A stretch of 64,000 nucleotides of DNA from DASRDR01 sp963812945 [NCBI: uncultured Candidatus Rokubacteria bacterium]. Lineage in GTDB: Bacteria; Methylomirabilota; Methylomirabilia; Rokubacteriales. Location of the stretch: positions 3,224,001-3,288,000 of the forward strand of contig CAWEXD010000008.1 of NCBI GenBank assembly GCA_963812945.1. The letters are read 5' to 3'. Both the position numbers and the translations under genes were made by a program. The notes below the pieces were generated by a model. It was not told where the DNA came from and searched no databases. It saw only the letters and a list, made by a program, of their open reading frames with translations. Shown in pieces: positions 25,315 to 63,955 of this stretch (positions within the stretch are counted from its first letter, which is position 1; each line of letters starts with the position of its first letter).

Positions 25315-26055
25315 TCACGCAGGTGGACGCTTGAACTCGGACGAGCTCCTTCCCGGAATCCGATCCTGGACTCCTCGATAGAGAGGAGCGATGCCCCGGT
25401 TTCGCATCTCAGCGATCCATCTCTCGGGCTCTCTTGCGCCAACGCAGAACAGGTACACAGGATTCACAGGGCTGTCGTTGGTCGTGCAGTAGATCATTCT
25501 GAAGCCGAAACCCCGGAACAGCTCATCCATGGCAAACGGGGAGAACCGCCAATAGTCCCAGAAGGAGCCTTCCTCCCAGTGAAGTTCCTGCAAGAACGGG
25601 ACGACAATGATCACGAGGTCACGGGACAACTCGCAGATATTCCTCATCGCGAGCCTCGCCTCGTAGATATGCTCCAGGGTCGTATGGTTGAATACGACGT
25701 CGTATCTCCTTTCAAGTTCTTTCGGCAGCTCCGCCGTCAGATCCAGGATGATCTGATTCTGATCAGCCGCGGTGCCCCGAGCCCCCCCATAGTTCGAGAT
25801 CGCGTAGGATTTCCTGTTCGGGAAGTACTCGGCATACTTTCCCCCCTCCTTGTCTCTGTCCTCCCACGCGGACACGTTGATCACATCGCCCTTGACGAGA
25901 GGACCCCACTTCCTCAGCTCTCGATTGGACCAGTATCTCGGGTCCCACTCGGAATGAATCCGTCTAAGGATCCGGCCGCTAAGAGAATAGAAGAACAGGA
26001 ATACCCAATCTAGCCTCGCCAGCACCCTTCGAAGTAGTCTCTTTGCGGAGCTCAC
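25315..26055 (-). CDS. SAM-dependent methyltransferase-like protein
   Basis: A 246-residue protein with a class I methyltransferase pattern in its middle: a DVINVSAWEDRDKEG strand region where the SAM-binding loop should lie, a conserved acidic strand end in QIILDLTAELP, and the DVVFNHTTLEHIYEA segment that resembles the post-SAM motif of Methyltransf_11 proteins. The SAM motif is not a clean GxGxG, so activity is uncertain. The gene is less GC-rich than its neighbours, suggesting transfer. It stands apart from the importer operon and may belong to the polysaccharide region, where small-molecule methylation is common. Confidence 0.55.
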   Translation of the reverse strand: MSSAKRLLRRVLARLDWVFLFFYSLSGRILRRIHSEWDPRYWSNRELRKWGPLVKGDVINVSAWEDRDKEGGKYAEYFPNRKSYAISNYGGARGTAADQNQIILDLTAELPKELERRYDVVFNHTTLEHIYEARLAMRNICELSRDLVIIVVPFLQELHWEEGSFWDYWRFSPFAMDELFRGFGFRMIYCTTNDSPVNPVYLFCVGAREPERWIAEMRNRGIAPLYRGVQDRIPGRSSSEFKRPPA

Positions 26056-28781: not shown

Positions 28782-28872
28782 CCTCTTTCCGAAAAGGCAA
28801 ACCCGTCGTGAGGCGGGGACGCAAAGCCACGGGTCAGGGTCGAGCCCTGATAGCCGGGTTACCGAAGAAGAG
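28782..28872 (+). promoter_or_regulatory. Cyclic-di-GMP-I (GEMM-I) riboswitch
   Basis: The conserved GEMM-I core is present in order: GGCAAACC (28796-28803), a CCCGTC-GTGA-GGCGGG stem with a GNRA tetraloop, GACGCAAAGCC (28818-28828), a second stem (CAGGGTCGAGCCCTG), then GATAGCCGGGTTACCG ending at 28864. The outer stem can form between CTCTTT (from 28783) and the purine-rich GAAGAAGAG (from 28864). By alignment to the known Vibrio Vc2 aptamer, the three ligand-contacting bases correspond to G28797, A28824 and C28862, all conserved. It lies 48 bases upstream of the start of the CARDB/GH123-like gene, in the sense direction. Confidence 0.9.
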
Positions 28873-28882
28873 GGGGGGCGGG

Positions 28883-28915
28883 TGCTCCTCCCGGGAAGGG
28901 CTTCCGGAGGGAGCA
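28883..28915 (+). promoter_or_regulatory. Possible Shine-Dalgarno-sequestering hairpin (riboswitch expression platform)
   Basis: TGCTCCTCC at 28883-28891 can pair with GGAGGGAGCA at 28906-28915 with one bulged base. The 3' arm includes the GGAGGG ribosome site of the downstream gene (ATG at 28921). Opening or closing this stem in response to aptamer folding would control translation. No T-run terminator is seen. Confidence 0.5.
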
Positions 28916-28920
28916 TACCC

Positions 28921-34522: not shown

Positions 34523-36202
34523 ATGGATCGATCGGGCGCTGAAGACGCCACGCTGTCGCGAGCAGCAGGCGCGACCACCCCGCGGCCTGGGCGACGTTCC
34601 TGGCATCGTGTAGTCGTCCCCCTCATCGTCGGCCTGTTCTTCGTCGCGTTTCACACAACCGATCGCCACCTCGCCACGCCGGAGGGCCCGTCAGCACTCG
34701 TCGTATGGGTGGTTGACAGCCTCACCCGCGTCCAGCCCACCGACAGCCCGGGACCCGATGTGGCGGCCCGGATCAAAGCCGCCCGCAACGAGTACGAGGC
34801 CTTCCAGATCGTGATCCGCGCCACGAATGGCCAGGCCCTGTCCAACGTCAGCGTCGCCGCGTCCCCGCTCATCGGCCCGGGGGGCGCCAGTGCGGGGCCC
34901 GTCCGGCTGTATCGGGAGCACTACATCCACGTCACGTCGCCGAGCCCGCAGTCGCCGTACGCGCCCGGCTGGTGGCCCGACCCCTTGATCCCGTTCGTTC
35001 ATCCCACCACCGGGCAACCGCTCGGGGGACGGTTCCCGAGCGCCCCGTTTCCCGTCAGCAGCGGCCAGAACCAGCCGATCTGGGTCGAGGTTCACGTGGC
35101 GCCAAACGCTCCCGCCGGGACCTACGAGGGCGCGCTCACCGTAACCGCCGACGGTCACGCGTCGGTCAGAGTCCCCGTGACCCTGACGGTCTGGAACATC
35201 ACGCTGCCGACACGCCCGTCCCTCCAGACCTGGTTCGGCGGCCTCGATACGCAGGATCACTTCGAGGAGTATCTCGACGAGCTGCTCAGGCACGGCGTAT
35301 CGGTCCTGCCTCCAAGCCGCACGCTTCCGGAGATTCGCCAAGACGGCTCCATCGACACCAGCGGCTCGGATGCGGCGCTGGCCGAGTTCCTCGAACGGGC
35401 CACCACGTGGACCATCCCGTGGTGGCCCGGAGGACACCCTTTCCCCGACGCCCTCGGCGCCAATCGGGTGCGGACTCAGCGCTACCTCCGCGAGATGCAG
35501 GATTACCTGCGGTCGCGTGGCTGGCTCCGCCGCGCCGTCCTCTTCCTCTACGATGAGCCGGACACCTCGGACAAGATGCGCGAAGCCGTCGCGTATGCCC
35601 GGGTCGCTCGGGAGGCGGCGCCGGACCTGCGGATCCTCGTGACCACACCGATCCGGAGCGAGTTCTACAACCTCGTGAATCTCTGGGTCCCCCCGTTTCG
35701 CGCCCAGAACCCGCGGCTCACCCGGAACCGCCAGGGACGAGGCGAAGAGGTGTGGAGCTACACGGCGCTCGCCCTCTGCCGAGCCTGCCCAACGTGGTTG
35801 CTCGACTATCCGCTCTTCCACCATCGCCTCCCCGCCTGGATCAACTGGTCCACGGGGCTCACCGGGCTGCTGTACTGGGCCACCAACCACTGGCGCGAAA
35901 GCACCGACCCGTGGACGAATCCGACGACCTACGGCCCCCACAACGGCGAGGGCGCTCTCGTGTATCCGGGCGAGGTCGTCGGCTACCCTGGCCCGGTAAC
36001 CAGCCTGCGATTGAAGGCGATCCGGGACGCCATCGAAGACTACGAGTACCTCACGATGCTCGCATCCCTCGGGGATCGGGCTTCTGCCGCCGACATCGCA
36101 TCGAGCGTCGGCCGGAGCTTCACGAGCTGGACCAGTGATCCGCGCGCACTCCTGGACGCGCGTGACCGGCTCGGCGATCGGCTTCACCGACTTGCGCGGT
36201 GA
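34523..36202 (+). CDS. DUF4091/GH123-like secreted or membrane-anchored protein, repeat-free paralog
   Basis: A 559-residue paralog of the C-terminal 505 residues of the giant CARDB protein (both contain VVWVVDSLTRVQPTD or a close variant, PSLQTWFGGLD, and YDYEYL-like ends). Residues about 28-46 (VVVPLIVGLFFVAFHTT) form an uncleaved signal anchor or signal peptide. The candidate catalytic pair is Asp344-Glu345 in LFLYDEPD. It lacks CARDB repeats, so it may work at the membrane while the larger protein reaches outward. The ATG at 34523 has only AAGG as a weak ribosome site. The enzymatic role is inferred from family, not shown. Confidence 0.75.
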   Translation: MDRSGAEDATLSRAAGATTPRPGRRSWHRVVVPLIVGLFFVAFHTTDRHLATPEGPSALVVWVVDSLTRVQPTDSPGPDVAARIKAARNEYEAFQIVIRATNGQALSNVSVAASPLIGPGGASAGPVRLYREHYIHVTSPSPQSPYAPGWWPDPLIPFVHPTTGQPLGGRFPSAPFPVSSGQNQPIWVEVHVAPNAPAGTYEGALTVTADGHASVRVPVTLTVWNITLPTRPSLQTWFGGLDTQDHFEEYLDELLRHGVSVLPPSRTLPEIRQDGSIDTSGSDAALAEFLERATTWTIPWWPGGHPFPDALGANRVRTQRYLREMQDYLRSRGWLRRAVLFLYDEPDTSDKMREAVAYARVAREAAPDLRILVTTPIRSEFYNLVNLWVPPFRAQNPRLTRNRQGRGEEVWSYTALALCRACPTWLLDYPLFHHRLPAWINWSTGLTGLLYWATNHWRESTDPWTNPTTYGPHNGEGALVYPGEVVGYPGPVTSLRLKAIRDAIEDYEYLTMLASLGDRASAADIASSVGRSFTSWTSDPRALLDARDRLGDRLHRLAR

Positions 36203-40341: not shown

Positions 40342-41973
40342 CTAGAGCGGGAACCACTCAAGGTCGGCCGGCGGCAGGCTAAGCCGAGTCGATGGCGGCA
40401 GCACCCGCTTCGCCTCTTCCGAGAGCCGGATCGTCACGATCACGCAGGCGCCATTCGGCAGCGTTCGCGGAAACTCCTCGCCAGGACTCCAGCCCGCGTA
40501 GACCACCGAGCGATTGGCCGCTCGCAGCTCGAGCACCCGTCCGTTCCCCAGTCTGTCGACCAAGGCAATCCGGCCTTCTCGGCGGGACATTACCGTCGTG
40601 AAGTGGGCCAGTCCCGTCCACCCGCCAGCGACCAGACAACCGTCCGACAGGTCAGGCAGGAGAGTCGTCCAACGCTCACGGTCCCACGCGAGAAACGCCT
40701 CGTTGAGTCGATGCCGCTCCCATACGCTCTCGCCCAGCCTTCGCGCACCCTGCACGTCGACGTGTCTGACCACACCACTCGTCAAAGCCCCGAGCGGCAG
40801 ATAGGCGAACAGGTTGGCCCCGCCGACCATGCCGATCAGCGCCCAGGGCGCGAGACCAGCGTGAGGCATGAGGCGCCGCCACAGAAGCGCGCCAAACAAG
40901 CAACCTCCCACCACGGCGTGGAGGAAATGACGGGACGGGAACGGGTTGCCGAGATAGAAGGCCAGCGTCGGGCCAACCATGAGCGCTCCCGCCGCAAGGT
41001 AGCGCCATTCCCTTCTGACCAGCACGCACGCCGTGCCGATTCCGAGCGCGACAATCGACCCGATACTCGCAACGTGCACCCATTTGGCAGCGCCGCGAAG
41101 CAACAGTGCCGGCCAGTAGTTGTCCTGCACGAATGCCAACACATCGACGCTTTCGACACCCCCGAGCGCAAGTAGCCGTCCCACACCGAGATAGCCCAGC
41201 ATGCTCGAACCAACAACGGCCCCGGACCACGCCGTCTCCCGCCAGGACCCGTCGGTCGCCCAGAAGGTCAATACTGGTACGACGAGAAACAGCAGGCCGA
41301 CATCAGCGCGATTCTCCAACGCGGCAAGAAACAAGAAAAGAGCACATGCCGAGCGAGTGACCTTCCACCACGACGACCCGTCACTGACCGAATGCCCACG
41401 GATCTCGACCAGGGCCGCCACTAGGAAGAGCAGGAGGGCCACCGTGACTGGATGCCCGTAGCTCCCGACCTCCAGCACGACGGGCGACGAGGCCATCGCC
41501 ACCGTCACCGCGAGCGCGCCCATCCGATCGGTGAACTCGCGGGCAAGGACGTACATCGTCCCGATGGCCAACCCGGTGGCGAGCCAGGATCCCATGTTCA
41601 TGAAGCCGATGAGCTGGTCGATCGTCCACTGCCTCCACCGGCCGACGCTGATCAACGCCCCGTAGTACAAGGGATGCCCTTGTGGGGCGTACAGCATCGG
41701 CTCGGTCAGACCCAGTCCGCCGAGAATCGCCTGATACGCACCAACCGCCATCGCCAGCGAGTCGGGCTCGCCCATCCCGTTCCGATACACCCATGGACTT
41801 GCAGCCACCAGCCACACGGCGACCAGGGCGCCCGCGATCACGACATCGGCACCACGCGAGGCACTCTTCAATCTGAACGCCCTCCCGGCGCAGAGGTACT
41901 CTCCACTCCCCGGAGACACTTCCGGTGCGCTGGGATCGGCCTCAGGTGCGCGAGTGCTCCGGACGCCGAGCAT
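40342..41973 (-). CDS. GT-C-like polytopic membrane protein
   Basis: A 543-residue protein with about ten to twelve membrane segments in the first 420 residues and a C-terminal soluble domain. The segment after the first helix, YRNGMGEPDSLAMAVGAYQAI, places an acidic Glu-Pro-Asp in the first periplasmic loop, and YAPQGHPLYYGAL follows, as in GT-C glycosyltransferases and related uncharacterised polymerases. ATG 41973 (GAGG nine bases upstream) is preferred to TTG 41988; either way it overlaps the upstream ligase gene by about 30 bases. Exact role unknown. Confidence 0.6.
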   Translation of the reverse strand: MLGVRSTRAPEADPSAPEVSPGSGEYLCAGRAFRLKSASRGADVVIAGALVAVWLVAASPWVYRNGMGEPDSLAMAVGAYQAILGGLGLTEPMLYAPQGHPLYYGALISVGRWRQWTIDQLIGFMNMGSWLATGLAIGTMYVLAREFTDRMGALAVTVAMASSPVVLEVGSYGHPVTVALLLFLVAALVEIRGHSVSDGSSWWKVTRSACALFLFLAALENRADVGLLFLVVPVLTFWATDGSWRETAWSGAVVGSSMLGYLGVGRLLALGGVESVDVLAFVQDNYWPALLLRGAAKWVHVASIGSIVALGIGTACVLVRREWRYLAAGALMVGPTLAFYLGNPFPSRHFLHAVVGGCLFGALLWRRLMPHAGLAPWALIGMVGGANLFAYLPLGALTSGVVRHVDVQGARRLGESVWERHRLNEAFLAWDRERWTTLLPDLSDGCLVAGGWTGLAHFTTVMSRREGRIALVDRLGNGRVLELRAANRSVVYAGWSPGEEFPRTLPNGACVIVTIRLSEEAKRVLPPSTRLSLPPADLEWFPL

Positions 41974-43408
41974 GTGACATCGCCTCAACCGGCCGGGTCT
42001 GACGCAGATCGCCCTCGCCGGAGCGGCCAGCCAGCCTGGCTAACACCAGAACCATACCGACCCAATACCAATTGAACGGGTCACCCGTGAAGGGACCGGG
42101 ATTGTGGAAGAAGGCGTTGACCTGGTACCCGACGAAGGATCCAGTCAACCCGATCGCTACACTCCGAAGAAATGGCGAGAGATTCGGAGAGCGCCGAATC
42201 CTCCCCAAGAGGCGGAACAGCTCGACATAGAACCAGATCAGGCCTAGCAACCCGAGGAAACCGAGGGCCACCAGGACGTTGAGGAACTGATTGTGAGCGG
42301 CTCGCTCCATCACGAAATGCGCTCCGGGCAGGTCCGACACCTCCGAATAGTAGTTCGCTGCGTACTCGTTGAAATGACCCTGTGGCCCGATACCCAGGGG
42401 GTGATCCAGCGCCACCAGGGTACCGGCGACAAACAGCGGTAGCCGTCCGTACGTGAGATCCTCGACGCCCAGGCCGCGGCGTTCGGCCAAATCAACGGCA
42501 CCGACGAGCACGATCATCACTGTCATCATGCCCAACAGCCACCGCACGCGCCCGCGTCGGCCAGAGAGCCAGACCACGACCGCGACTCCGATCATCGCTC
42601 CCGCAATCCCCGAGCGCGCAAGCGTCGCTCCCAGGCCGGCGACCAGCGCTCCTACCGCGACAAGGGGTATGAGCCGCGCTCTTGGTGCCCCCTTGCCGAT
42701 CAGCCATACGCTCATCGCGATGGGCAGCACGGTGACCAACTGGTACGCGAGTTGAATCGCGAAGTACGTCAGGCCGGTCACACGTTCACGCCCCCGGATC
42801 TGGTGCGAGACGCTGCCCTCGGCCTCGAGGCCCAGGCTCTCGCGGAGCTGCCACGCTTCCTCGACGCCAAACATCTGCAGGACGGCCACCAGCGACGACA
42901 GCGCGAGGCATCCGGTAACGAACTGAAGAAAACGCCTGATGTCCCGCTCTTTGGTGAGGATGCTCGACGTAACGAGACAGATCAGAATCGGAACGCCGAG
43001 CGTCTTCGCGAACTCGTATGACGCATTGACAAGGTCCGGGGCCAGGCCCAGGCCACGGACGAACGCCCACGAGGTGATCAACAGTACCGCGCCGGCGAAA
43101 CGGTAGGCCGAGGCCGGGACGGGCACGACGCCTCCGTAGAGAACCCTGATCGCGGCAGGAAACGCCAGGAACGCGATCACGTAGTTGCGCGGCGGCAGGC
43201 CCAGCGCTTGCACGTACGAGAAGTAGAGGTCGAGAAGCACCGCCAGGCATAGTCCCCACACTGGCTGCGCGACCATCGCAACCGCGGCGACTACAACGCC
43301 CGCCAGCCCGATCGACTCCATGATGCCGAGGCGGCTCTGGAGCGTCAGCAACCCGACCACGCCCGTCATGCCCAAGCCCGCAACGACGGCCAGCCAGAGT
43401 CCTTTCAT
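41942..43408 (-). CDS. O-antigen ligase/polymerase family membrane protein
   Basis: A 488-residue protein with about eleven hydrophobic segments and the Wzy_C-like periplasmic loop pattern: LARSGIAGAMIG, then GIGPQGHFNEYAANYY and ERAAHNQFLNVLVALG near residue 370. These elements mark WaaL ligases and Wzy polymerases. The start ATG overlaps the stop of the flippase gene by four bases (ATGA). With the adjacent Wzx-like flippase it may polymerise the exported repeat unit; a second, TPR-fused family member lies at 60336-63245. Confidence 0.85.
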   Translation of the reverse strand: MKGLWLAVVAGLGMTGVVGLLTLQSRLGIMESIGLAGVVVAAVAMVAQPVWGLCLAVLLDLYFSYVQALGLPPRNYVIAFLAFPAAIRVLYGGVVPVPASAYRFAGAVLLITSWAFVRGLGLAPDLVNASYEFAKTLGVPILICLVTSSILTKERDIRRFLQFVTGCLALSSLVAVLQMFGVEEAWQLRESLGLEAEGSVSHQIRGRERVTGLTYFAIQLAYQLVTVLPIAMSVWLIGKGAPRARLIPLVAVGALVAGLGATLARSGIAGAMIGVAVVVWLSGRRGRVRWLLGMMTVMIVLVGAVDLAERRGLGVEDLTYGRLPLFVAGTLVALDHPLGIGPQGHFNEYAANYYSEVSDLPGAHFVMERAAHNQFLNVLVALGFLGLLGLIWFYVELFRLLGRIRRSPNLSPFLRSVAIGLTGSFVGYQVNAFFHNPGPFTGDPFNWYWVGMVLVLARLAGRSGEGDLRQTRPVEAMSHARRPEHSRT

Positions 43409-53888: not shown

Positions 53889-55071
53889 GGTCACCTCCGC
53901 GGATCCCCGTGGTCCACGCTCGACGCTCAGTGGCGAGCCGACGGGCGGCATATTGCTCCACGGTCTCACCGTAGATCTTCAGAACGTCCCGGACTGTCTG
54001 ATCCCAGGAGAACAGACGTTTGACATGCTCTGCGCCCGTCCAGCCGATGCGAGTCCGGCTCTCGTCGTCCCCGAGCAGCATCGCGACGCGGTTTGCGAAC
54101 GCCTCGACGTCTCCCGCGGGCACGAGTAGACCGGAGACTCCGTCATCGATCGTCTCGGTCAGCGACGCCACGGCCTGCGCGACGACAGGCTTGCCGCACG
54201 CCATCGCTTCCTGGGGGGCGAGAGCGAACCCCTCGAGCAGCGACGAGAACACGAACACGTCCGCGAGGTTGATAGTGGCGACCTTCTCGGCCTCGGGGAC
54301 ATGACCGGCGAGGACCACTGAGTCCCGAACTCCGGCCGCCACGGCTCGTCGCTCGATCTCCTTGCGCATCGGCCCCTCACCGATGAGCATGAGTACGACG
54401 TCGTTCCCGACCAGCTGGCGGACTCGCGCGAGCACCTCCACGAGCATCACCTGGTTCTTGCGGGCGGTGAGAACACCCGTGGAAAGAAGCACCCGCTTGC
54501 CGACGAGGCCCCAGCGCTGAAGCAATACCGGGTCCTTGGCCATGGGCGTGAACTTGTCCTCGACTCCGCAGTAGACGACACGGATATTCGATCCATCGAG
54601 GTCGAGCTCTTCGAGGAGACACCGGCGCGAGTACTCGCTATCGGTGATCACCTGGTCGGACGCCATCAGGACCCGCCGCTCGATGACACGGTTGAGGGGA
54701 CTCGGGTCAAGGTGATGATGGTGCGTAACGACGGGAACCGGCAGCCGGTAGATACGGCGCGCCAGCAGCGCGGCGAGGCCGATGTGCCGCACGGCATGGG
54801 CGCGGATCAGGTCGAAGGGGGCTCGATCGTACGTCTGCTTGATGTAAGGCGCGAACACGAATGGCGCAACCCACCAGCGGAGGCCACGGGACGGGACGAT
54901 GCGGCGCACCTCCCACCCAGGGACCCCGACCTCGTGCGGCTGACTGCCCGCAAGAAGGATGCGCAGATCGACGCCCTGCTCGCCCAGCCCTCGCAGCAAA
55001 CCGCACTCGTAAACCTCGCCGCCGAGACCGGAGCCGGGAAAGAGGCCGCACTGGGGGGAGCAGACGCGCAT
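53875..55071 (-). CDS. GT4-family glycosyltransferase
   Basis: A 398-residue GT-B transferase: a Gly-rich acceptor loop (FPGSGLGGEVYECGLL) near residue 12, LSTGVLTARKNQVMLVEVL in the donor site and EX7E in LEGFALAPQEAMACGKPVV. ATG 55071 shares a base with the aminotransferase stop (TGATG); GTG 55074 is a possible alternative. Part of a coupled series from the BY-kinase down to the dioxygenase. Confidence 0.85.
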   Translation of the reverse strand: MRVCSPQCGLFPGSGLGGEVYECGLLRGLGEQGVDLRILLAGSQPHEVGVPGWEVRRIVPSRGLRWWVAPFVFAPYIKQTYDRAPFDLIRAHAVRHIGLAALLARRIYRLPVPVVTHHHHLDPSPLNRVIERRVLMASDQVITDSEYSRRCLLEELDLDGSNIRVVYCGVEDKFTPMAKDPVLLQRWGLVGKRVLLSTGVLTARKNQVMLVEVLARVRQLVGNDVVLMLIGEGPMRKEIERRAVAAGVRDSVVLAGHVPEAEKVATINLADVFVFSSLLEGFALAPQEAMACGKPVVAQAVASLTETIDDGVSGLLVPAGDVEAFANRVAMLLGDDESRTRIGWTGAEHVKRLFSWDQTVRDVLKIYGETVEQYAARRLATERRAWTTGIRGGDHERK

Positions 55072-56183
55072 CACCGAGTCACCCCCGCCCGCACGGCTTC
55101 GACGATGAGTCCCCGATCACTCTCGCTGAGATCCGGAGAACACGAGACGTAGAGCCCTCGCGCGAGGACGTCCGCGGCGACCGGCGTGTCGCTCGGCTCG
55201 TAGCCCAGGGCGCGATAGGGCCCCTCGCCGCTGATCAGCGAGAAGAACGGACGCGTCTCCACTCCAGCCTCGTGGAGCGCGTGCTCCGCCTGCTGCCGAT
55301 GCCGGGCCGTGCGGAAGAGCATGTGATATGCGAAGGGCGCCGTCGCGGCGTACGGCGCTTCGCCGGGCAGGCGTTCGATGCTGTCCGTGAGGTCCGCGAG
55401 CTCACGATTCAGCGCCGCGATGTTCTGTCGACGCCGCGCGATCGCCTGCGGGAGCTTGCCCATCTGGACCAGCCCGATCGCAGCCTGAAGATCCGTCAGC
55501 TTGTAGTTGGCGCCGAGCAGCGGATGGACGAAGTGCTCGCCGGGCAACTGTCCGAGGTTGCGCACGGCCTGCATGCGCCGGCACAGGTCGGCATCGCCGG
55601 TGACGATCATGCCGCCCTCTCCGGACGTGACCGTCTTGTTGGTGTAGAGAGAGAAGTAGCCGGCATGACCCATGCTTCCCACCGGCCGGCCGCGATACTG
55701 CGCGCCGATCGCCTGGCACGCGTCCTCCACGATAGGGATCCCATGACGCGCGCCAATCTCCAGCAGCGGGTCCATGTCCACCGGGTGGCCGAGGAGATGG
55801 ACCGGCAGGATGAGCTTCGTTCTCGAGGTGATTCGGGCCTCGACCTTGGTGACGTCGAGGTTGTATGTCCCGGGGTCGATATCGACGAACACCGGCTCGG
55901 CGCCCTGGAACAGCACAGGGTTGGCGGAGGCGATGCAGGAGAGCGGCGAGGTCAGAACCTGATCGCCCCGCTTGATGTCGAGGCCGAGCAGAACGGTGTG
56001 GAGGGCGGCGGTTCCGTTGCACGTCGCCACGGCGTGGGGGGCCCCCGTCAACCGGCGGAAGGCATCCTCCAGGTCGCGGACTCGTGGTCCCTGGCTGATC
56101 CAGCCGCTGCGGACCACGGCCGCGACGGCCTCCGCCTCGGCTTCGCCGATGTCCGGGCGCGCGACCGGAACCTGCCACCCCAT
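55071..56183 (-). CDS. DegT/DnrJ/EryC1/StrS family PLP aminotransferase
   Basis: A 370-residue sugar aminotransferase. The PLP-binding Lys183 is in SLYTNKTVTSGEGG, with Asp154 of the cofactor ring contact in IVEDACQAIGA and the CNGTAALHTVL segment near residue 55. Such enzymes aminate the 4-keto sugar made by a FlaA1/PglF-type dehydratase. The gene directly upstream encodes exactly such a dehydratase (with a receiver domain), so the two likely make a UDP-4-amino-sugar together. ATG 56183 has AGGGG upstream; GTG 56201 is a longer option overlapping the dehydratase stop. Confidence 0.9.
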   Translation of the reverse strand: MGWQVPVARPDIGEAEAEAVAAVVRSGWISQGPRVRDLEDAFRRLTGAPHAVATCNGTAALHTVLLGLDIKRGDQVLTSPLSCIASANPVLFQGAEPVFVDIDPGTYNLDVTKVEARITSRTKLILPVHLLGHPVDMDPLLEIGARHGIPIVEDACQAIGAQYRGRPVGSMGHAGYFSLYTNKTVTSGEGGMIVTGDADLCRRMQAVRNLGQLPGEHFVHPLLGANYKLTDLQAAIGLVQMGKLPQAIARRRQNIAALNRELADLTDSIERLPGEAPYAATAPFAYHMLFRTARHRQQAEHALHEAGVETRPFFSLISGEGPYRALGYEPSDTPVAADVLARGLYVSCSPDLSESDRGLIVEAVRAGVTR

Positions 56184-56194
56184 CCTTCTGGCCC

Positions 56195-58591
56195 CTAACA
56201 CTTCTCCGGGACGGGGATCCCGGGAGTGCTCGCCGGCTCCGGTCCGACCGTGCGTCGCAGCACGGCCTGGACACGAGCGAGAAGCTCGTCGATGCTGAAC
56301 GGCTTCGTCACGTAGTCGTCCGCCCCCGCTTGAAGGCCGACGACCGCGGATCCATCGGCGCTGTATCCGGTGATGAGAATGACTCGGATCCCCGCCGTGA
56401 TCGGATCGCTCCGGAGGGTCCGGCAGAGATCGAGCCCACTCGCGTCCGGGAGGTTCACGTCGAGCAGCACGAGATGGGGGGGTCGGTGCCGCGACAGATC
56501 GAGGCCCACGGCCGCGGTCTCCGCGACCTCGACATCGTAGCGCTCGTCGAGGATCTCCCGCAGGAGGTCGCGGCTCATGCTGTCGTCATCCACGATGAGG
56601 ATCCGGTGCTTCTCGCCCGCTTCGGGCACCGTGAATCCCTGCCGGCCAGGCGGCGGCGAGTAGCTCGGAACGACCTCGTGGACGAGCCCCAGCAGGCCGG
56701 GGACATCGCCCTGAATGGCCCTCCGCTCCAGCTCGCCGACGAGAGCCTTCATCTCCCTCACGGGCCGCCGAATCTGGCGGATGGCGAAGATCCGCTCAGC
56801 AGGGGACCGTACGATCTCCTCGTCGTCCTGCCAGAGGACCTCGTGCAACTTCTCCCCGGGTCGTAGTCCCACGAACTGCTTCGAGACATCGCCCGGTGCC
56901 AGCCCGAGCGACGCGACCAAGTCGTCGACGAGCTGCGTGATCTTCACCGGCTCGCCCATGTCGAGCACGAACACGTCGCCCTCGAGGTTCGTCGTCGGGC
57001 TCTCCAGGACCAGGCTCACCGCCTCGGGAATCGTCATCAGGAATCGGGACACGTCGGGATCGGTGATGGTGATCGGCTCGCCATTCTCGATCTGCCGCGT
57101 GAACAGCGGCACGACGCTCCCCGCGCTGCCGAGCACGTTCCCGAATCGGACGACGACGAATCGGGTCGAGGGGTTCCGGCCCTGGCGCCCCCCGTGGCTG
57201 CCGTTGAGAGCCGCCAGGTACATCTCGCAGATCCGCTTGGTGGCGCCCATGAGATTGCCCGGCTTCGCGGCCTTGTCCGTCGAGATGAAGACGAATGTCT
57301 CGGCGCCGTACATCTCGGTGACGTCCGCCAAGCGCCGGGTCCCGACGACGTTGTTGAGCACCGCCTCCCCGGGGTGGTCTTCGAGGATCGGGACGTGCTT
57401 GTAGGCCGCCGCGTGAAAGACGATCTGCGGCCGGTAGCGCTGGCAGAGCTCGGTCATCCGCGGCACGTGCTTGACGTCCGCGAGAGCCGCCGTCACGGAG
57501 GCGTCGGGAAATCGGCTCGCCATCTCGAGAGTAATCTCGTTAAGGGCGTTCTCCGACCGCTCGACCATCACCAACGACGACACGCCGAACCGCAGCACCT
57601 GACGGCAGATCTCGGAGCCGATCGAGCCCCCGGCACCGGTGACCATGACCCGCTTGCCTTCGAGGAAGGCCCGGAGCTTCGGCTCGTCAGGCCGAGTCGG
57701 CTCGCGGCGTAGCAGCTCGTCCACGTCGAAGGATCGGAGGTACCGGAACCGGCCACGGCCCTGCACGAGCTGGGTCACCGAAGGCAAGACCTTGAAGTTC
57801 ACGCCGGCCGCGACGCACGTGGTTGAAATCGAACGGAGCATCGCCCCGTCGAGATTCGGAAGCGCGATGACCGCGTCGTGCACCCGAAAGTGTCGCGCGA
57901 CACGCGGCAGCTCGGCGATGGTCCCGAGCACCGGCACATCGCGGACCGTCTGGCCGGTCCGCGCAGGGTCGTTGTCGAGGAAGCCCACCACCTGGAACCC
58001 CATCGAGGGATTCGCACCGATCTCTCGGGCGATCGATTCACCCGACTCACCGACGCCAATGATCACCACCCGCCGCATCTCGGTCGCATTAGGCTCGGTG
58101 CGCACCTGGCTCACGAGGCGCACCAGAGCGCGAATCGCGGTCGCCAAGACCACCGTGAACACCAGGGTGAGCAGGAGCACCGAGCGCGGGTACGATCGCC
58201 ACCCCAGAACCACCACGATCAGCGCGTGCAGGCTCCCTCCGAGCACCGCCGCCTTGGTGACACGGAGGAGATCCTCCATGCTTGCGTAGCGCCAGATGCT
58301 CCGATAGGTTCGCAAGGTCGCGAACGCCAGGAAGTAAGCCGATGTCGTCACGAGGACCCCGTGCACGAGAAGCCACGCTTGCTCGAGCGGCAGGACCCCC
58401 TCGAATCGGACCATGAAGGCCAGCACGTTGGCGGCAACGACCGCGGCGACATCGATGGCGATCCGGCCGCACTGCTGCCAGATCGCGAAGGCCTGCGGGC
58501 CCCCGACCCATCGATCGCTGATCGGCGTCGTCATCAGTCTCCGAAGCGCCGACCATCGGCTCGGCGCCACTGGCCGCATCGGTGTGCTCAC
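56195..58591 (-). CDS. FlaA1/CapD-type nucleotide-sugar 4,6-dehydratase fused to a response-regulator receiver domain
   Basis: A 798-residue fusion. Residues about 43-158 hold four membrane segments, 172-290 a Rossmann domain (VVIIGVGESGES), and 315-600 the short-chain-dehydrogenase core with TGAGGSIGSE, STDK (437-440) and MGATK (448-452), where Met replaces Tyr as in PglF-type 4,6-dehydratases. So far this is an ordinary FlaA1/CapD protein. Residues 662-780 add a full CheY-like receiver: acidic DDD (668-670), phospho-acceptor Asp711 in LVLLDVNLPD, Thr741 and Lys763. No DNA-binding domain follows. GTG 58591 overlaps the sensor-kinase stop (GTGA), so the kinase is the likely cognate partner. 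Phospho-control of the dehydratase is inferred. Confidence 0.9.
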   Translation of the reverse strand: MSTPMRPVAPSRWSALRRLMTTPISDRWVGGPQAFAIWQQCGRIAIDVAAVVAANVLAFMVRFEGVLPLEQAWLLVHGVLVTTSAYFLAFATLRTYRSIWRYASMEDLLRVTKAAVLGGSLHALIVVVLGWRSYPRSVLLLTLVFTVVLATAIRALVRLVSQVRTEPNATEMRRVVIIGVGESGESIAREIGANPSMGFQVVGFLDNDPARTGQTVRDVPVLGTIAELPRVARHFRVHDAVIALPNLDGAMLRSISTTCVAAGVNFKVLPSVTQLVQGRGRFRYLRSFDVDELLRREPTRPDEPKLRAFLEGKRVMVTGAGGSIGSEICRQVLRFGVSSLVMVERSENALNEITLEMASRFPDASVTAALADVKHVPRMTELCQRYRPQIVFHAAAYKHVPILEDHPGEAVLNNVVGTRRLADVTEMYGAETFVFISTDKAAKPGNLMGATKRICEMYLAALNGSHGGRQGRNPSTRFVVVRFGNVLGSAGSVVPLFTRQIENGEPITITDPDVSRFLMTIPEAVSLVLESPTTNLEGDVFVLDMGEPVKITQLVDDLVASLGLAPGDVSKQFVGLRPGEKLHEVLWQDDEEIVRSPAERIFAIRQIRRPVREMKALVGELERRAIQGDVPGLLGLVHEVVPSYSPPPGRQGFTVPEAGEKHRILIVDDDSMSRDLLREILDERYDVEVAETAAVGLDLSRHRPPHLVLLDVNLPDASGLDLCRTLRSDPITAGIRVILITGYSADGSAVVGLQAGADDYVTKPFSIDELLARVQAVLRRTVGPEPASTPGIPVPEKC

Positions 58592-60330
58592 GATGCGCTC
58601 TTCTCGACCGCCGGAAGCCGAATCTCGAGCACGGTGGATCCGCCGGCACTCGACAGTGACACCGAGCCGCCGTGTCTGTTCACGAGAGACCGAATGACCG
58701 ACAGACCAAGTCCGAGGTGCGGCCGTTCCTTCGTCGACACAAGAGGCGCGAATGCATCCTGCTGCACGTCAGCGGGAACGCCGGAGCCGGAATCCTCGAC
58801 GGCGATCAGGACGTGACCGTTGACCCGCGCCGTGCGAAGCCGGACGCGCCCGCCGTCCGGCATCGCCTCCACCGCGTTCTCGATCGCGTGGACAATGGCC
58901 CCGATGAGTGACGCCGACGCCTGCGCCAGGAGCGGCTCGGACGGCGTCTCCATGTGGTACTCCACCGCCGGAGCCAGCCCATCCTGATGCTGGTCCCAGC
59001 GCCAGCGGGCGATCTCGACCGCGTGCTGGACCATCCCGTTGACGTCGATTGGCTCCACGCGGATCGGGCCCGGGGATCCCATGCGTTCCCGAACCGGCCC
59101 AAGCACGGCGAGGACCTCATCGGCCACGCGCTCGGCGAGCGAAGGCGCGCTCGTGCCCCCTTCGAGGGCCTTCCCGGATTGGGGAACGAGCCGGGCCAGA
59201 CGCGGCGGCAGCTGAGTCGACACGAGATCAAGAATGCGGGCGACCGTCTCCGACAGGGCGGTCCGCTGGTGCTCGGTCAGGAGCTGGTAGGCCGCACCAC
59301 CGAGCCGGCGCTGCTCGCTCCGGTGATCCTCGAGCGCACCCACGACACCGAGTGCAAGGCTGACCAGCTCGCCGCGCCGGCGGAACGCTTCGAGTTCCCA
59401 GTTGCTTGGCCGGAGGTCGTCCGCGACGTACAGGCAGGCGATCCCCTGCAGGCGGTCCGCGCGCATCAGCGGGAGCCCGACACGGCTCCACACCTCGCCG
59501 GATCTCATCGCCGGATTGAGAGGGTCAAGCGGGTCGTCGGCGACGCTGACCACGCTGACGGGCCACCGCCCGTCGGCGCCCGTGCGCACGAGAGCGAGGA
59601 TGAGCTGAGCGGCGTCGTGACTGTTGAACGGCCCCGGGAGACCGTGCTGTGCGATCGGCTCCATTGCGCCATCAGGCCTGGCCCGAAACAGGATGCCACT
59701 CACGGGGGCACCTACCCAGTCGGACATCTCCGCTGAGCACGCCGCCAGAACCTCGGCCGGACTCCGCGCCTCCATGACGTCCTGGGCCAGCCGCAGGAGC
59801 GACGACATGGCTCGCGTCTGCCGTCGTACACGCCCCGCTTCCCACGCGTGGGCCGAACCGGTCACGAATTCGTCGAGAATGGCTCGGCAGCGGCTTCGCT
59901 TCTGCTCGGTGAACGCCGCGCGGGCCGACGACCGCATTTCCCCAAGTCCGAGCACGCCGATCGCTTCCTCGCCGAGGCGGATCGGCACCAGGTAGACCGA
60001 CTGCAGACTCAGCTCGTGTCCCCCGTTCCCCTCCAGGCTGACGGCCGGCCGGCCTTGGCCGTCGAGAAAGACCGGTTCCTGCCGCTCGAGCACAGCGCGG
60101 TGCCACGGTGACCGGGCGAGCCAGATCTTCGTGCCGATCCGTGGCGACTGCGGAAGGGGTCGGGGCATTCCAACGGCTTTCACGGTCAGACCAAAGCTCG
60201 GATGGTCCCAGAGCGCAACGCTGGCAACGGTCACCGGGAGCGCGCGCGCCAGGTCCTCGGCGAACTCCTGCACCGCCGTTTCCATGCCCCACTGCCCGGG
60301 TCCGGCGTCCACCGTGTACATGTCGCCCAC
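58588..60330 (-). CDS. GAF-GAF-HATPase sensor kinase with degenerate H-box
   Basis: A 580-residue, apparently soluble sensor protein. Two GAF-like domains (about 15-165 and 185-335) precede a helical dimerisation region (340-440) and a histidine-kinase ATPase domain with N-box IENAVEAM (Asn485), G1 DSGSG (513-517), F-box region and G2 GLGLS (540-544). Where the phospho-acceptor HELxNPL motif would be expected there is TQLPPRL (372-378), so the phosphorylatable His seems lost. GTG 60330 has GAGGG nine bases upstream. It is coupled to the receiver-fused dehydratase. It could act with another kinase, phosphorylate from a non-canonical His, or work as a phosphatase. Confidence 0.85.
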   Translation of the reverse strand: MGDMYTVDAGPGQWGMETAVQEFAEDLARALPVTVASVALWDHPSFGLTVKAVGMPRPLPQSPRIGTKIWLARSPWHRAVLERQEPVFLDGQGRPAVSLEGNGGHELSLQSVYLVPIRLGEEAIGVLGLGEMRSSARAAFTEQKRSRCRAILDEFVTGSAHAWEAGRVRRQTRAMSSLLRLAQDVMEARSPAEVLAACSAEMSDWVGAPVSGILFRARPDGAMEPIAQHGLPGPFNSHDAAQLILALVRTGADGRWPVSVVSVADDPLDPLNPAMRSGEVWSRVGLPLMRADRLQGIACLYVADDLRPSNWELEAFRRRGELVSLALGVVGALEDHRSEQRRLGGAAYQLLTEHQRTALSETVARILDLVSTQLPPRLARLVPQSGKALEGGTSAPSLAERVADEVLAVLGPVRERMGSPGPIRVEPIDVNGMVQHAVEIARWRWDQHQDGLAPAVEYHMETPSEPLLAQASASLIGAIVHAIENAVEAMPDGGRVRLRTARVNGHVLIAVEDSGSGVPADVQQDAFAPLVSTKERPHLGLGLSVIRSLVNRHGGSVSLSSAGGSTVLEIRLPAVEKSAS

Positions 60331-60335
60331 AGCGG

Positions 60336-63245
60336 TTACCCTCGACCGCCGCCGTCAAGATTCGCGAGGCCGCGGCGAGCGCCTTCATGCTCCGGACGCC
60401 CGCTGAGAATTCGCCGATACTGCTCGGCGGCGCGGTCAGGCCATCCGGCACGGGCAAACAGCTCGGCCAGCTCCAGCCGGAGGTCCCAGTCGCGAGGCCG
60501 CAGCGCGATCGACGCTTCGTACGTGGCCACCGCTTCTCGCACGTGACCGGCGCGCGCCAGGGCTCGCGCGACCTCCCACTGGAGATACGCGTCACTGCTG
60601 GCCATGCTCGACGCCGTCTGGAACTCCACGAGCGCCCCCGACCCGTCGCCCCCCGCGACCATGGTCCGCCCCAGGTCGAGGCGCAGCCACGGATCGTTGG
60701 GCGTCGCCTTGAGGACCTGGCGCCACAGGGCGATGGCCCGATCGCCCTGACCGTGTCGGGCGAAGAACCCGGCGAGCTGGCGGCGATACGCGTTGGCCCG
60801 CTGGGGGGCGTCCGGGCCCACGCGCGCGATCGCGGAGGTGAAGGCTGCCTCGGCCTCCGTCACCTTGCCGAGATCCTCGTAGACCTCGCCGAGCAGGACG
60901 AAGACGTCCGGGTCCTCGGGCGCCGCCACCAGGGCCTGGCGGGCCTGGCTCAGCGCGCGCTCGCGATCGCTGCGCCGCAGGAGGGCCCGACCGTAAGCGA
61001 TCCGAGCCTCGGCCTCCTGCGCCGGGTGGGCAGAAAGCTCGATCGCCTCCTCGTAGGCTCTCCAGGCGGCGCGCCACCGCTCCCGCTGCTCGAAGTGCTG
61101 GGCGAGCTCGCGCCGGAGCGTGCGGTTGCGGGGAACCGAGTCGAAGACGAACTCCTGATCCGCGTTGCGGCTGAAGAGCTCGTCGACAACCCGACCGAGA
61201 TACCACGGGTCGATGGTGAGCACTCGACGAAACGCCTCAGCCGCGATCCGACGGCTGGTCTTCTCGTCCACCGGAAAGGCCAGGGCGTACCGTGCAAGAC
61301 TCAAGAAGCGCGGCACGTTGTTGGGGTCGATCTGTGTGCCCAGCGTCACCTCACCGAGTCCCCGGGCGATGAGGTCGTCGTCGGACCGGAAGAGGTCGGC
61401 GAGTGGCGCATCCAGCGCCCCATCCGAAAGGCCCCGGGCGGCGCGGCGGACCCCGTGGAGCCGGCCAAGCAGCCAACCGAAGCCCTGGTGGGCGACCGGG
61501 TCCACGGGCCTGTGCTCAAGACTCTGCCGGTACGCCACGTAGGCGCGAGCGACCAGGCCCTGGGTCGCCCGGAGCCGCGTTTGAGCCGAGGCGTCGGGCA
61601 GGCGGCGCCCCTCGGCGTCGATGCCGGCAATCCACATCCGCGCGGCCGTCTCGTCGAGCACCTCGGCCAGGGCCGCCTGGGCGCGCGGGTTACGCGGATC
61701 CCACGCGACGGCCTGCTCCATGTCACGACGCGCCTCGGCGAGCTCGCGCATGCCCACCGTGCCGCGCACGCGCTCGGCGCGACCCGCCCGGGCGAGCGCC
61801 GACTGGAGCTTCCAGTCAGCCACGCCTGGGGGAACGAGCCAGAACGTGGCGACGACGACCAGGCCGGCCGCGACCACCCCGGTGGCCCATGCGCCCGTGC
61901 GCCCCGCGAGAGACCAGCGCCACTGCTCGAGCTCGACGCTCTCGCCGGTCCGGTGCACGCGCCAGGTTACGATCGCCGGCGTGAGCGCCGCCACCGCGAC
62001 GACCACGAGGGCGTTCCCCGGCCGGTGCAGCCCGAAGTCGACCAGGCTGTGGAGGGCGGCGACCACGAGCGCGCAGGTCCCCCCGATGGTGAGGCCCTTG
62101 ACGAACGGGTCACGCCGCTGGCGGAGACGCCTCACCACGAACATCCCGAACGCCACGAGAGCCCAGACGAGCAAGCCGAGGCCGACGACGCCCGCCTCCG
62201 CAAACAGCTGAAGGTAATCGTTGTGCGCGAAATCGATGAGCTTGTCAAAGGCCACCGCAGTGGGCCGAACCCGGGTGAACGCATCCTGGAACCCACCCAG
62301 ACCCACGCCGAGGAGGGGCGTCTCCATCGCCATGCGCAAGGTCGCTTCCCAGATCGGCCACCGCAACTCGACGACGGGATCGCGTGCGACGCTGATCAGG
62401 CGCGCGGCCGTGGATTCCAGTCCCACCCACGCCGCGTACGCAGTGGTCGCAACCAGCCCGCCGACGATCAGGAACGGCAGCCGGCCCCGGGCTCGGCCGG
62501 CCGCCACCAGCACGAGGAGGATCACCAGGCCGCCGAGGGTGCTCACGATGGCGCCACGTGACATGGTCAGCGCGAGGGCCATCCCGAGGACGAAGATCAG
62601 ACCCACCAAAACCACGCTCGCGCCCAGCCGACGGGAGCCGCGGCCGGCCATCCTGGTGTCCGAGTCGCCGCGCCGACTGGGGCGCAGCAGTAGCCCGAGA
62701 GCGAGGAACAGGGACATCGAGAAGTAGAGCGCCTGGTGGTTCGGATTGAGGAAGGTCGTCGTCAGACGGTCATGGGTCAGCGACTTGGGCAGCCAGAGCA
62801 ATGGCTGAGCCCCCAGGGCGAAGTTCATCAGGCCCAGCACGGCCGCGGCCGCGCCCAACGCGACGAGCGTCCACGTGAGGCGAAGGATGCGCGCGCGGGT
62901 AGAGAGATAGCCGCTCAAGACCACCAGGAGCACGAAATACGCGAGGTAGAGTCGCGCACTCTCTCCCGTCGCGTACGGGCTCACGGATCGCCCGGGCACC
63001 AGCGCCTGCAGCATCACGACGGCAGCCATCAGGCACCCGGGCCAGAAGGCCGGATGGCGGCGAACGGTGAACTCGCCCGCCGCTAGCATGCGTACCAGCC
63101 AGAGAGCCGCCACCACGGCAACTCCGGCCTCGATGGCCGCCTGCGCCCACGGGCGCACGCCGCCGTAGGGCAACGGTGCGAACAGCAGGAGCGCCACGAC
63201 GCCGATCTCGATGCCGGCGTCGAGCGCCCGCGACAGCCGGGTCAC
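60336..63245 (-). CDS. O-antigen ligase-like membrane protein fused to TPR repeats
   Basis: A 969-residue fusion. The first 460 residues hold about a dozen membrane segments with Wzy_C/WaaL marks: TTFLNPNHQALYF near residue 165, TMSRGAI, VGLGGFQDAF and DFAHNDYLQLFAEAG near residue 330. The rest, from about residue 470, is a string of TPR-like helix pairs, including ALVAAPEDPDVFVLLGEVYED and later repeats spaced about 34 residues. TPR-fused ligases occur in EPS loci, where the repeats probably hold partner proteins in the periplasm. The GTG start overlaps the BY-kinase stop (GTGA). Five bases separate its stop from the sensor-kinase start. Confidence 0.85.
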   Translation of the reverse strand: MTRLSRALDAGIEIGVVALLLFAPLPYGGVRPWAQAAIEAGVAVVAALWLVRMLAAGEFTVRRHPAFWPGCLMAAVVMLQALVPGRSVSPYATGESARLYLAYFVLLVVLSGYLSTRARILRLTWTLVALGAAAAVLGLMNFALGAQPLLWLPKSLTHDRLTTTFLNPNHQALYFSMSLFLALGLLLRPSRRGDSDTRMAGRGSRRLGASVVLVGLIFVLGMALALTMSRGAIVSTLGGLVILLVLVAAGRARGRLPFLIVGGLVATTAYAAWVGLESTAARLISVARDPVVELRWPIWEATLRMAMETPLLGVGLGGFQDAFTRVRPTAVAFDKLIDFAHNDYLQLFAEAGVVGLGLLVWALVAFGMFVVRRLRQRRDPFVKGLTIGGTCALVVAALHSLVDFGLHRPGNALVVVAVAALTPAIVTWRVHRTGESVELEQWRWSLAGRTGAWATGVVAAGLVVVATFWLVPPGVADWKLQSALARAGRAERVRGTVGMRELAEARRDMEQAVAWDPRNPRAQAALAEVLDETAARMWIAGIDAEGRRLPDASAQTRLRATQGLVARAYVAYRQSLEHRPVDPVAHQGFGWLLGRLHGVRRAARGLSDGALDAPLADLFRSDDDLIARGLGEVTLGTQIDPNNVPRFLSLARYALAFPVDEKTSRRIAAEAFRRVLTIDPWYLGRVVDELFSRNADQEFVFDSVPRNRTLRRELAQHFEQRERWRAAWRAYEEAIELSAHPAQEAEARIAYGRALLRRSDRERALSQARQALVAAPEDPDVFVLLGEVYEDLGKVTEAEAAFTSAIARVGPDAPQRANAYRRQLAGFFARHGQGDRAIALWRQVLKATPNDPWLRLDLGRTMVAGGDGSGALVEFQTASSMASSDAYLQWEVARALARAGHVREAVATYEASIALRPRDWDLRLELAELFARAGWPDRAAEQYRRILSGRPEHEGARRGLANLDGGGRG

Positions 63246-63955
63246 TTCGACTTCGCCCCTCGGGTGTAGTAGCCGTCGTACGTGTCGTAGTAGCGCTTGG
63301 AGTACCCGTTGGCGCCGGCGTCGAAGCGGTTGATGACGGCGCCGATGATGCGTCCGTGCACGGCCACGATCTGCTCCTTCGCGCGGCGGAGAGCCGCCTG
63401 CGGAGCACTCCCGCTCCCGACCACCAGAAGCACGCCGTCGACGACACCGGCCAGGGTGCAGGCGTCGCTCACCGCGAGGACCGGCGGAGAGTCGAACACG
63501 ACGGTGTCGAAGCGCTCGCTGACGGCGCCGACGAAGTCGCGCATTCGACGGGAAGCAAGAAGTTCAGCTGGATTCGGTGGCATCGGTCCGCTCGACACGA
63601 TGGACAGGTTCGGGATCGCCGTCTTCTGGACGACCGCATCGAGCAGGGCGTCGCCCGCCAGGTAGGACGACAACCCGGGGTTGTTCGGCTGCCGGAACAT
63701 CATGTGCAGCATCGGCCGGCGAAGATCGGTGTCCACGAGCAGCACGACCCGCTCGCTCTGCGCCATGCAGATGCCCAGGTTCGCCACGGTCGTCGACTTG
63801 CCCTCGCCCGGACCGGCACTCGTGATCAGGATGCGGCGCAACGGCGCGTCGGGGTTCGCGTAGTGCAGGTTCGTGCGCAGGACGCGGTACGCTTCCGCCT
63901 GAAATGAGCGCGGATCGTCCAGCATCACGAGCCGCTCGGAAGGGGAACGCTTCAC
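63242..63955 (-). CDS. BY-kinase ATPase domain protein (CpsD/CapB/Wzc C-terminal type)
   Basis: A 237-residue P-loop tyrosine autokinase of the kind that controls polysaccharide chain length and export. Walker A is SAGPGEGKST (46-55), Walker A' LLVDTDLRR (72-80) and Walker B VVFDSPP (151-157). The C-terminal end carries a cluster of six tyrosines (217, 221, 222, 225, 228, 229), the usual autophosphorylation sites. There is no membrane part, so it needs a Wzz-like partner, probably the gene cut by the window edge. GTG 63955 has GGAGG seven bases upstream. Confidence 0.9.
   Translation of the reverse strand: MKRSPSERLVMLDDPRSFQAEAYRVLRTNLHYANPDAPLRRILITSAGPGEGKSTTVANLGICMAQSERVVLLVDTDLRRPMLHMMFRQPNNPGLSSYLAGDALLDAVVQKTAIPNLSIVSSGPMPPNPAELLASRRMRDFVGAVSERFDTVVFDSPPVLAVSDACTLAGVVDGVLLVVGSGSAPQAALRRAKEQIVAVHGRIIGAVINRFDAGANGYSKRYYDTYDGYYTRGAKSK

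What the first reader, a model, noticed from the sequence alone, without database searches (positions are those of the whole stretch)
56195..58591. Nucleotide-sugar dehydratase with a built-in two-component receiver domain
A FlaA1/CapD-type 4,6-dehydratase ends in a complete CheY-like receiver (acidic DDD 668-670, Asp711, Thr741, Lys763). Known response regulators drive DNA binding, c-di-GMP turnover, methylesterase or phosphatase outputs; a membrane-bound sugar dehydratase as the output is not one I know of. This would let a signal directly switch precursor supply for surface glycan without transcription. The sensor kinase gene overlaps it by four bases.
Basis: partly seen in the sequence, partly recalled or inferred. 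Interest (0 to 1): 0.92.

Follow-up and report, generated by a model that had tools for sequence, protein, structure and literature searches.

The report
Sugar dehydratase carrying a receiver domain
A membrane-type enzyme that probably makes a building block for surface sugars carries a built-in bacterial signal-receiver domain, and the sensor gene beside it appears to have lost the amino acid that would normally pass on the signal, so sugar supply may be switched directly but not in the textbook way.

Summary
On the minus strand, 56195-58591 is one open frame of 798 aa: N-terminal helices, CoA_binding_3, a PglF/WbpM-type UDP-GlcNAc 4,6-dehydratase, a roughly 20-residue linker, and a complete receiver (REC) domain with its phosphorylation residues. 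The neighbouring 'sensor kinase' overlaps by 4 bp but looks degenerate: no HisKA match, and the column that is His in 26 of 26 aligned relatives is Asp368, while the ATP-binding boxes are largely kept. Plain kinase-to-receiver phosphotransfer is therefore doubtful; a reader or phosphatase role, with phosphate from elsewhere, fits better. No second dehydratase-REC fusion turned up among 250 distinct dehydratase frames, drawn partly from whole-genome samples of nine inferred phyla. Three of those frames carry other signalling domains at the same C-terminal position: PilZ twice, and a degenerate-looking EAL once. REC domains on metabolic enzymes are a known class (PMC5847659), so this is a new variant. 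A stop codon lost by sequence error cannot be excluded, since the junction is seen in one sequence only.

The parts
56195..58591 (-). Dehydratase-receiver fusion gene, 798 aa
   Evidence: single open frame; Pfam domains
58100..58501 (-). N-terminal four-helix region, residues 31-164
   Evidence: AlphaFold2 helices 31-62, 69-92, 105-129, 136-164; membrane insertion is inferred from WbpM (PMC8987622 passages)
57782..58297 (-). CoA_binding_3 (PF13727) match, residues 99-270
   Evidence: 65.8 bits, cut-off 25
56780..57649 (-). Polysacc_synt_2 catalytic domain, residues 315-604, with T438 D439 K440 and M448 x3 K452 (PglF/WbpM signature)
   Evidence: 346.2 bits; these five residues are the same in 37 of 37 relatives in alignment A1; signature from PMC8987622
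56609..56671 (-). Linker, residues 641-661, rich in Pro and Gly
   Evidence: sequence; model confidence block means 69 and 62
56627..56629 (-). In-frame GTG (V655) just before the receiver; possible internal or ancestral start
   Evidence: sequence; weak AGG upstream; inference
56267..56602 (-). Receiver domain, residues 664-775
   Evidence: 91.6 bits, full length; complete (beta-alpha)5 fold, 10 of 12 block means from 661 to 780 at 92 or more, the others 89 and 77; Foldseek matches OmpR-family receivers
56459..56461 (-). Codon of D711, predicted phosphorylation site
   Evidence: D in 23 of 23 receivers of A1
58588..60330 (-). Partner gene, 580 aa: GAF-type region plus degenerate histidine-kinase core
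   Evidence: GAF and GAF_2 above cut-off, HATPase_c 60.8 bits, no HisKA listed at E <= 1
59227..59229 (-). Codon of D368, in place of the phosphoacceptor His
   Evidence: H in 26 of 26 aligned relatives; caveat: profile does not reach this stretch
58609..58902 (-). HATPase_c domain of the partner, residues 477-574; N, G1 and G2 boxes kept, F box partly (L530 for F, H538 for G)
   Evidence: model confidence blocks mostly 88-96
55071..56201 (-). DegT/DnrJ/EryC1 sugar aminotransferase, overlaps the fusion gene by 7 bp; likely next pathway step
   Evidence: Pfam 353.3 bits; below the PseC and LegC-family cut-offs
60336..63245 (-). Wzy_C O-antigen ligase domain with TPR repeats
63242..63955 (-). 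Polysaccharide-type tyrosine autokinase
   Evidence: TIGR01007 177.3 bits, cut-off 108

Best explanation
The gene encodes a membrane-anchored PglF/WbpM-type UDP-GlcNAc 4,6-dehydratase whose C-terminal receiver domain is a regulatory input. Shown here by sequence: an intact enzyme signature, an intact receiver, a single frame, and an overlapping partner gene with a GAF-type region, a histidine-kinase-like core and an ATPase domain but, by alignment, Asp in place of the phosphoacceptor His. Inferred: D711 is phosphorylated by another kinase or a small phosphodonor; the partner does not donate the phosphate but binds the receiver, as the pseudokinase DivL binds DivK~P, or dephosphorylates it, depending on what its GAF region senses; receiver dimerisation or partner binding then changes the dehydratase's assembly or activity and so the supply of a 4-keto-6-deoxy precursor to the aminotransferase encoded next to it and to the surface-glycan cluster.
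For: Complete receiver with all catalytic residues. PglF-type residues T438 D439 K440 M448 K452 kept, identical in 37 of 37 relatives of alignment A1. Partner: no HisKA match; the H column is His in 26 of 26 relatives and Asp in the window; D368-to-N485 spacing 117, inside the range 111-121 of 23 of 26 relatives; best PDB sequence match is DivL, E 4.2e-14, though only over residues 422-576. Operon: overlaps of 4 and 7 bp; cluster of glycosyltransferases, a PF00953 protein, flippase-like and Wzy_C proteins. Other signalling domains at the C-terminus of the same enzyme family: PilZ in L247 and L301, EAL in L319.
Against: No biochemical data and no second REC fusion: 0 of 250 distinct frames. The alpha4 Lys/Arg position (dimer face, from recall) is A749 here; the column holds K in 14, R in 3 and A in 3 of 23 receivers. 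A profile of the 26 relatives aligns to the partner only from residue 395, so the placement of D368 rests on multiple alignment and spacing; H354 (in EHQRT) is not excluded as a displaced acceptor. By fold search the partner model is nearest to active kinases; DivL is rank 11 and 14, so a special likeness to DivL is not shown.
Confidence: 0.5

Rival explanations
1. Conventional two-component control: the partner is still an active kinase, using a displaced histidine such as H354, and phosphorylates the receiver to switch the enzyme.
For: Gene overlap; ATP-binding boxes largely intact; H354 lies in EHQRT on the same predicted helix 321-379; fold search ranks active kinases first.
Against: No HisKA match; the only H[DE]xx[NTQ] stretch of the protein is at 238, outside the kinase core; H354-to-N485 spacing of 131 is outside 111-121, though three of 26 relatives have 134, 140 and 151.
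Confidence: 0.15
2. The fusion is a sequence error or a recent stop loss: originally a dehydratase gene followed in frame by a separate single-domain receiver gene starting at GTG 56627-56629.
For: GTG directly before the receiver; relatives of the enzyme end close to this point, 108 of the 111 measured within 45 residues of residue 645, median 16; no second example; several linker codons are one base from a stop (sequence).
Against: No stop in 798 codons; third-position GC similar across the junction, though the linker is only 21 codons; Pro/Gly-rich linker looks like an interdomain linker; other signalling domains occur at the same position in relatives.
Confidence: 0.17
3. Dual products: the frame makes both the fusion and a free receiver from the internal GTG, the free receiver acting elsewhere.
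For: Internal GTG with a weak AGG upstream.
Against: Weak ribosome-binding site; no further output domain on the receiver.
Confidence: 0.08
4. The receiver is a phosphorylation-independent docking module that holds the enzyme and its partner in a glycan-assembly complex.
For: Partner seems to lack the acceptor His; one dimer-face position is Ala.
Against: The receiver's catalytic positions are kept, which is not expected if phosphorylation were dispensable.
Confidence: 0.1

Closest known systems
PglF / WbpM / CapD-type UDP-GlcNAc 4,6-dehydratases
   Same: PF13727 and PF02719 domains, TDKx(n)Mx3K signature (PMC8987622 passages); Foldseek ranks 1-9 are PglF (with high rmsd because part of the model is poor)
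   Different: 108 of the 111 relatives measured end within 45 residues of the equivalent of residue 645; this one adds a receiver
Response regulators with enzymatic domains (e.g. the REC-glycosyltransferase MTH_548 group)
   Same: Receiver joined to a metabolic or glycan enzyme; narrow phyletic spread (PMC5847659 section 14)
   Different: Different enzyme family; receiver at the C-terminus of a membrane-type dehydratase; coupled to a partner that seems to lack the acceptor His
DivL pseudokinase of Caulobacter
   Same: Histidine-kinase core with the acceptor His replaced (PMC4211667 passages); best PDB sequence match to the partner
   Different: DivL has Tyr550 and PAS domains and senses DivK~P; the partner here has Asp368 and GAF-type domains and lies next to an enzyme-receiver fusion; DivL is only rank 11 by fold
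Dehydratases of this family with C-terminal PilZ (L247, L301) or EAL (L319)
   Same: Signalling domain attached at the same end of the same enzyme
   Different: Cyclic-di-GMP-type domains, no receiver; found here, function untested

Membership tests
PglF/WbpM-type 4,6-dehydratase | PF13727 and PF02719 domains | tested here: met
   65.8 and 346.2 bits
PglF/WbpM-type 4,6-dehydratase | TDKx(n)Mx3K, Met in place of Tyr | tested here: met
   T438 D439 K440 M448 K452; signature from PMC8987622
PglF/WbpM-type 4,6-dehydratase | 4,6-dehydratase activity on UDP-GlcNAc | not testable with these tools
   no assay
Response regulator (receiver) | acid pair, phosphoacceptor Asp, Thr/Ser, Lys | tested here: met
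Response regulator (receiver) | phosphorylation in response to a kinase | not testable with these tools
   no assay
OmpR/PhoB response regulator | C-terminal winged-helix DNA-binding domain | tested here: not met
   no such Pfam domain among the 22 families listed; the protein ends 23 residues after the receiver match
Histidine kinase | HATPase_c with N, G1, F, G2 boxes | tested here: met
   HATPase_c 60.8 bits; N485, D513, G515, G517, G540, G542 kept, F box partly (L530, H538)
Histidine kinase | phosphoacceptor histidine in an H-box | tested here: not met
   Asp368 where 26 of 26 aligned relatives have His; no HisKA match; caveats H354
DivL family | Tyr at the acceptor position and PAS domains | tested here: not met
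   Asp368; GAF-type N-terminus, no PAS listed
DivL family | binds a phosphorylated receiver | not testable with these tools
   no assay

The most novel reading that the evidence does not exclude
The C-terminus of PglF-type dehydratases is a recurrent socket for signalling modules (receiver here; PilZ and a degenerate EAL in other phyla), giving cells direct post-translational control of an early precursor sugar of surface glycans; in this locus a His-less GAF kinase-like protein serves as a dedicated reader or phosphatase of the enzyme-borne receiver, a two-component pair without a canonical kinase.
Probability: 0.33. Interest if true: 0.8.

Novelty: new variant of a known kind. Interest (0 to 1): 0.62.

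Why it matters
A receiver on the dehydratase would let phosphorylation set precursor supply for surface glycan at once, without new transcription. The parallel PilZ and EAL fusions make the general question, whether PglF-type dehydratases are regulated through their C-terminus, directly testable with purified protein. The His-less partner is also a compact model for how kinase-like proteins may act on receivers without phosphotransfer.

Tried and rejected
Plasmids: the 5000 best records only, one covering >=80% of the query and ending at residue 687. Whole genomes with a match at the stated cut-off: 76 of 199, 53 of 140 (24), 99 of 198 (26), 67 of 188 (32; largely the same genomes, so partly wasted), 86 of 198 (33), 132 of 299 (37), 71 of 168 (42), 25 of 149 (43), 47 of 156 (74), 72 of 149 (75); 16 of 16 at 1e-20, where some matches are receiver only. 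Cut-offs differed (1e-60; 1e-90 in 37, 42, 43; 1e-80 in 74, 75). In some searches the whole fusion was the query, so receivers competed for the 3-7 candidates scored per genome and dehydratases may have been missed. Phylum names are inferred from the titles of the seed loci; the genome tool names none. By my reading of the listings, every listed place with an open frame of 740 aa or more was fetched or already held as a locus and checked for a receiver by BLAST and, up, by a receiver profile.

Many roughly 850-aa frames in the Nitrospirota sample looked like candidates but carry an N-terminal extension; the three scanned, and L301, hold a sugar transferase domain (Bac_transf).

The whole genome of the window is not held, so the organism stayed unidentified; no tRNA gene was found.

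Of the 12 frames with tails of 60 aa or more, 8 were scanned with Pfam. L256, L309 and L318 gave no extra C-terminal domain; L315 and L316 neither, though L316 shows a P-loop-like motif by eye. L233, L245, L246 and L330 were judged read-through or low complexity by eye and not scanned.

Rows dropped: alignment A1 used 37 of the 159 dehydratase stretches and 23 of the 26 receiver stretches prepared; the partner alignment used 26 of 29 kinase-like frames (the three below 65 bits, from L080, L040 and L221, were left out; one search shows an H-box-like motif in each).

Model limits: the fusion model has low confidence at 504-602, so domain packing was not interpreted; the partner's N-terminal region and its two helices are low confidence.

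Full report
Observation. The named interval holds a single minus-strand frame of 798 codons. hmmscan finds CoA_binding_3 (99-270), Polysacc_synt_2 (315-604) and a full-length Response_reg (664-775, 91.6 bits against a cut-off of 30.2). AlphaFold2 on a 61-row alignment gives a complete (beta-alpha)5 receiver, with 10 of 12 ten-residue block means from 661 to 780 at 92 or more, a linker with block means 69 and 62, and a poorly modelled second half of the catalytic domain. Foldseek matches the model to PglF, with high rmsd, and to OmpR-family receivers.

The enzyme. The motif TDK...M...K (T438 D439 K440, M448, K452) is that of the WbpM/PglF group, in which Met replaces the usual Tyr (review PMC8987622, passages seen). 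The 37 dehydratases of alignment A1 share these residues. The N-terminal bundle and PF13727 domain resemble those of large phosphoglycosyl transferases; the authors of PMC10942596 suggest feedback control of both enzyme groups through that domain (passages). The next gene, overlapping by 7 bp, is a DegT-family sugar aminotransferase, which fits a 4-amino-6-deoxy sugar pathway (inference). The flanks hold glycosyltransferases, a PF00953 (MraY/WecA-type by recall) protein, flippase-like and Wzy_C proteins and a tyrosine autokinase.

The partner. The upstream gene (58588-60330) overlaps by GTGA. Pfam finds GAF-type domains above cut-off and HATPase_c, and lists no HisKA at E <= 1. I aligned the protein with 26 kinase frames from the loci fetched when a Myxococcota sample was searched with it (109 of 131 genomes matched); they are the best scorers (above 65 bits), not orthologues. 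The column of the phosphoacceptor is His in 26 of 26 and Asp368 in the window. At +1 the window has Leu (relatives 17 E, 8 D, 1 Q), at +4 Thr (23 N, 2 T, 1 E) and at +6 Leu (25 of 26). Spacing from D368 to the N-box Asn is 117; 23 of 26 relatives have 111-121 and three have 134, 140 and 151. The N, G1 and G2 boxes are retained; the F box is partly changed (L530 where F is usual, H538 where G is usual). AlphaFold2 gives a long helix 321-379, a second helix 395-417, both at low confidence, and a confident ATPase domain. Cautions: a profile built without the window protein aligns to it only from residue 395, so the register of the first helix is not proven and H354 remains a possible displaced acceptor. 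The best PDB sequence match is DivL, over residues 422-576, but by fold search active kinases rank first and DivL is 11th and 14th. DivL is a pseudokinase with Tyr in place of His that senses the phosphorylated receiver DivK (PMC4211667, start of abstract and passages). From general knowledge (recalled, no call), kinases lacking the His can keep phosphatase activity when the +4 residue is Thr or Asn.

Is the fusion unique? Searches covered 80 loci from named genomes, 80 from viral contigs of which 28 match the dehydratase part, plasmids, and whole-genome samples from phyla inferred to be Acidobacteriota, Myxococcota, Nitrospirota, Desulfobacterota, Pseudomonadota, Actinomycetota, Planctomycetota, Cyanobacteriota and Bacillota. 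Among 250 distinct dehydratase frames (BLAST above 150 bits) in the 341 loci then in hand, none holds a receiver by BLAST (E <= 0.01) or by a receiver profile (E <= 10); one further locus and one duplicate checked by BLAST gave none. Places with shorter frames were judged from the listings only. Coverage is limited by cut-offs and by the few candidates scored per genome, and the window's own phylum is unknown and may not have been sampled.

Unexpected parallel. Of 247 frames that reach near the end of the enzyme, 12 have a tail of 60 residues or more; 8 of the 12 were scanned with Pfam and three carry a signalling domain: PilZ in L247 (28.2 bits, cut-off 22.5), PilZ in L301 (37.6 bits) and EAL in L319 (210.2 bits). 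These long frames were fetched because they were long, so 3 of 247 is not a frequency. By eye against recalled motifs, the EAL domain looks degenerate (DNIGVG where DDFGTG is usual, ATGVE where AEGVE is usual), so it may be a binding rather than a catalytic domain. The same enzyme end has thus received signalling modules more than once, in samples inferred to be Desulfobacterota, Nitrospirota and Cyanobacteriota.

Mechanism and alternatives. I favour a receiver-regulated dehydratase whose partner reads or removes the phosphate rather than donating it (0.5). A conventional kinase with a displaced His (0.15), a stop lost by error or very recently (0.17), dual products (0.08) and a phosphorylation-independent dock (0.1) remain. 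The error rival matters most because the junction is seen in one sequence only, relatives of the enzyme end close to it (108 of the 111 measured, before the later long frames were fetched, within 45 residues of residue 645), and a GTG with a weak ribosome site sits at V655.

Novelty. A census of archaeal two-component systems (PMC5847659; passages, section 14 read) states that bacterial receivers attached to standard metabolic enzymes are known and lists a receiver-glycosyltransferase fusion; the two older reviews it cites were not held. My searches for a receiver on such a dehydratase found 0 papers, 92 with 20 listed, 2 and 0; for PilZ or EAL on such enzymes, 123 with 10 listed. None of the listed titles and abstract starts is about such a fusion; the library holds open-licence papers only. 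I rate this a new variant of a known kind.

Noticed in passing
window 28787-28867 (+): c-di-GMP-I-GGC riboswitch (71.5 bits) directly upstream of a 1622-aa CARDB/GH123 protein at 28882-33750, in the same window as the glycan cluster.
   Followed up: partly
L319:2865-5702 (+): PglF-type dehydratase with a C-terminal EAL domain (210 bits) that looks degenerate by eye.
   Followed up: partly
L247:4617-6938 (-) and L301:895-3795 (+): Dehydratases with a C-terminal PilZ domain; L301 also has an N-terminal sugar transferase domain.
   Followed up: partly
L315:2182-5025 (-) and L316:1877-4957 (-): Dehydratases with C-terminal extensions of about 290-355 aa and no Pfam match there; L316 has a P-loop-like motif by eye.
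   Followed up: no
L204-L223: Dehydratase frames of about 810-945 aa from the Nitrospirota sample with an N-terminal extension; Bac_transf confirmed in the three scanned (L204, L214, L221).
   Followed up: partly
window 34523-36202 (+): Second GH123-type glycoside hydrolase near the one behind the riboswitch.
   Followed up: no
window 40342-41988 (-) and 25315-26055 (-): Proteins of 548 and 246 aa in the glycan region without any Pfam match at E <= 1e-4.
   Followed up: no
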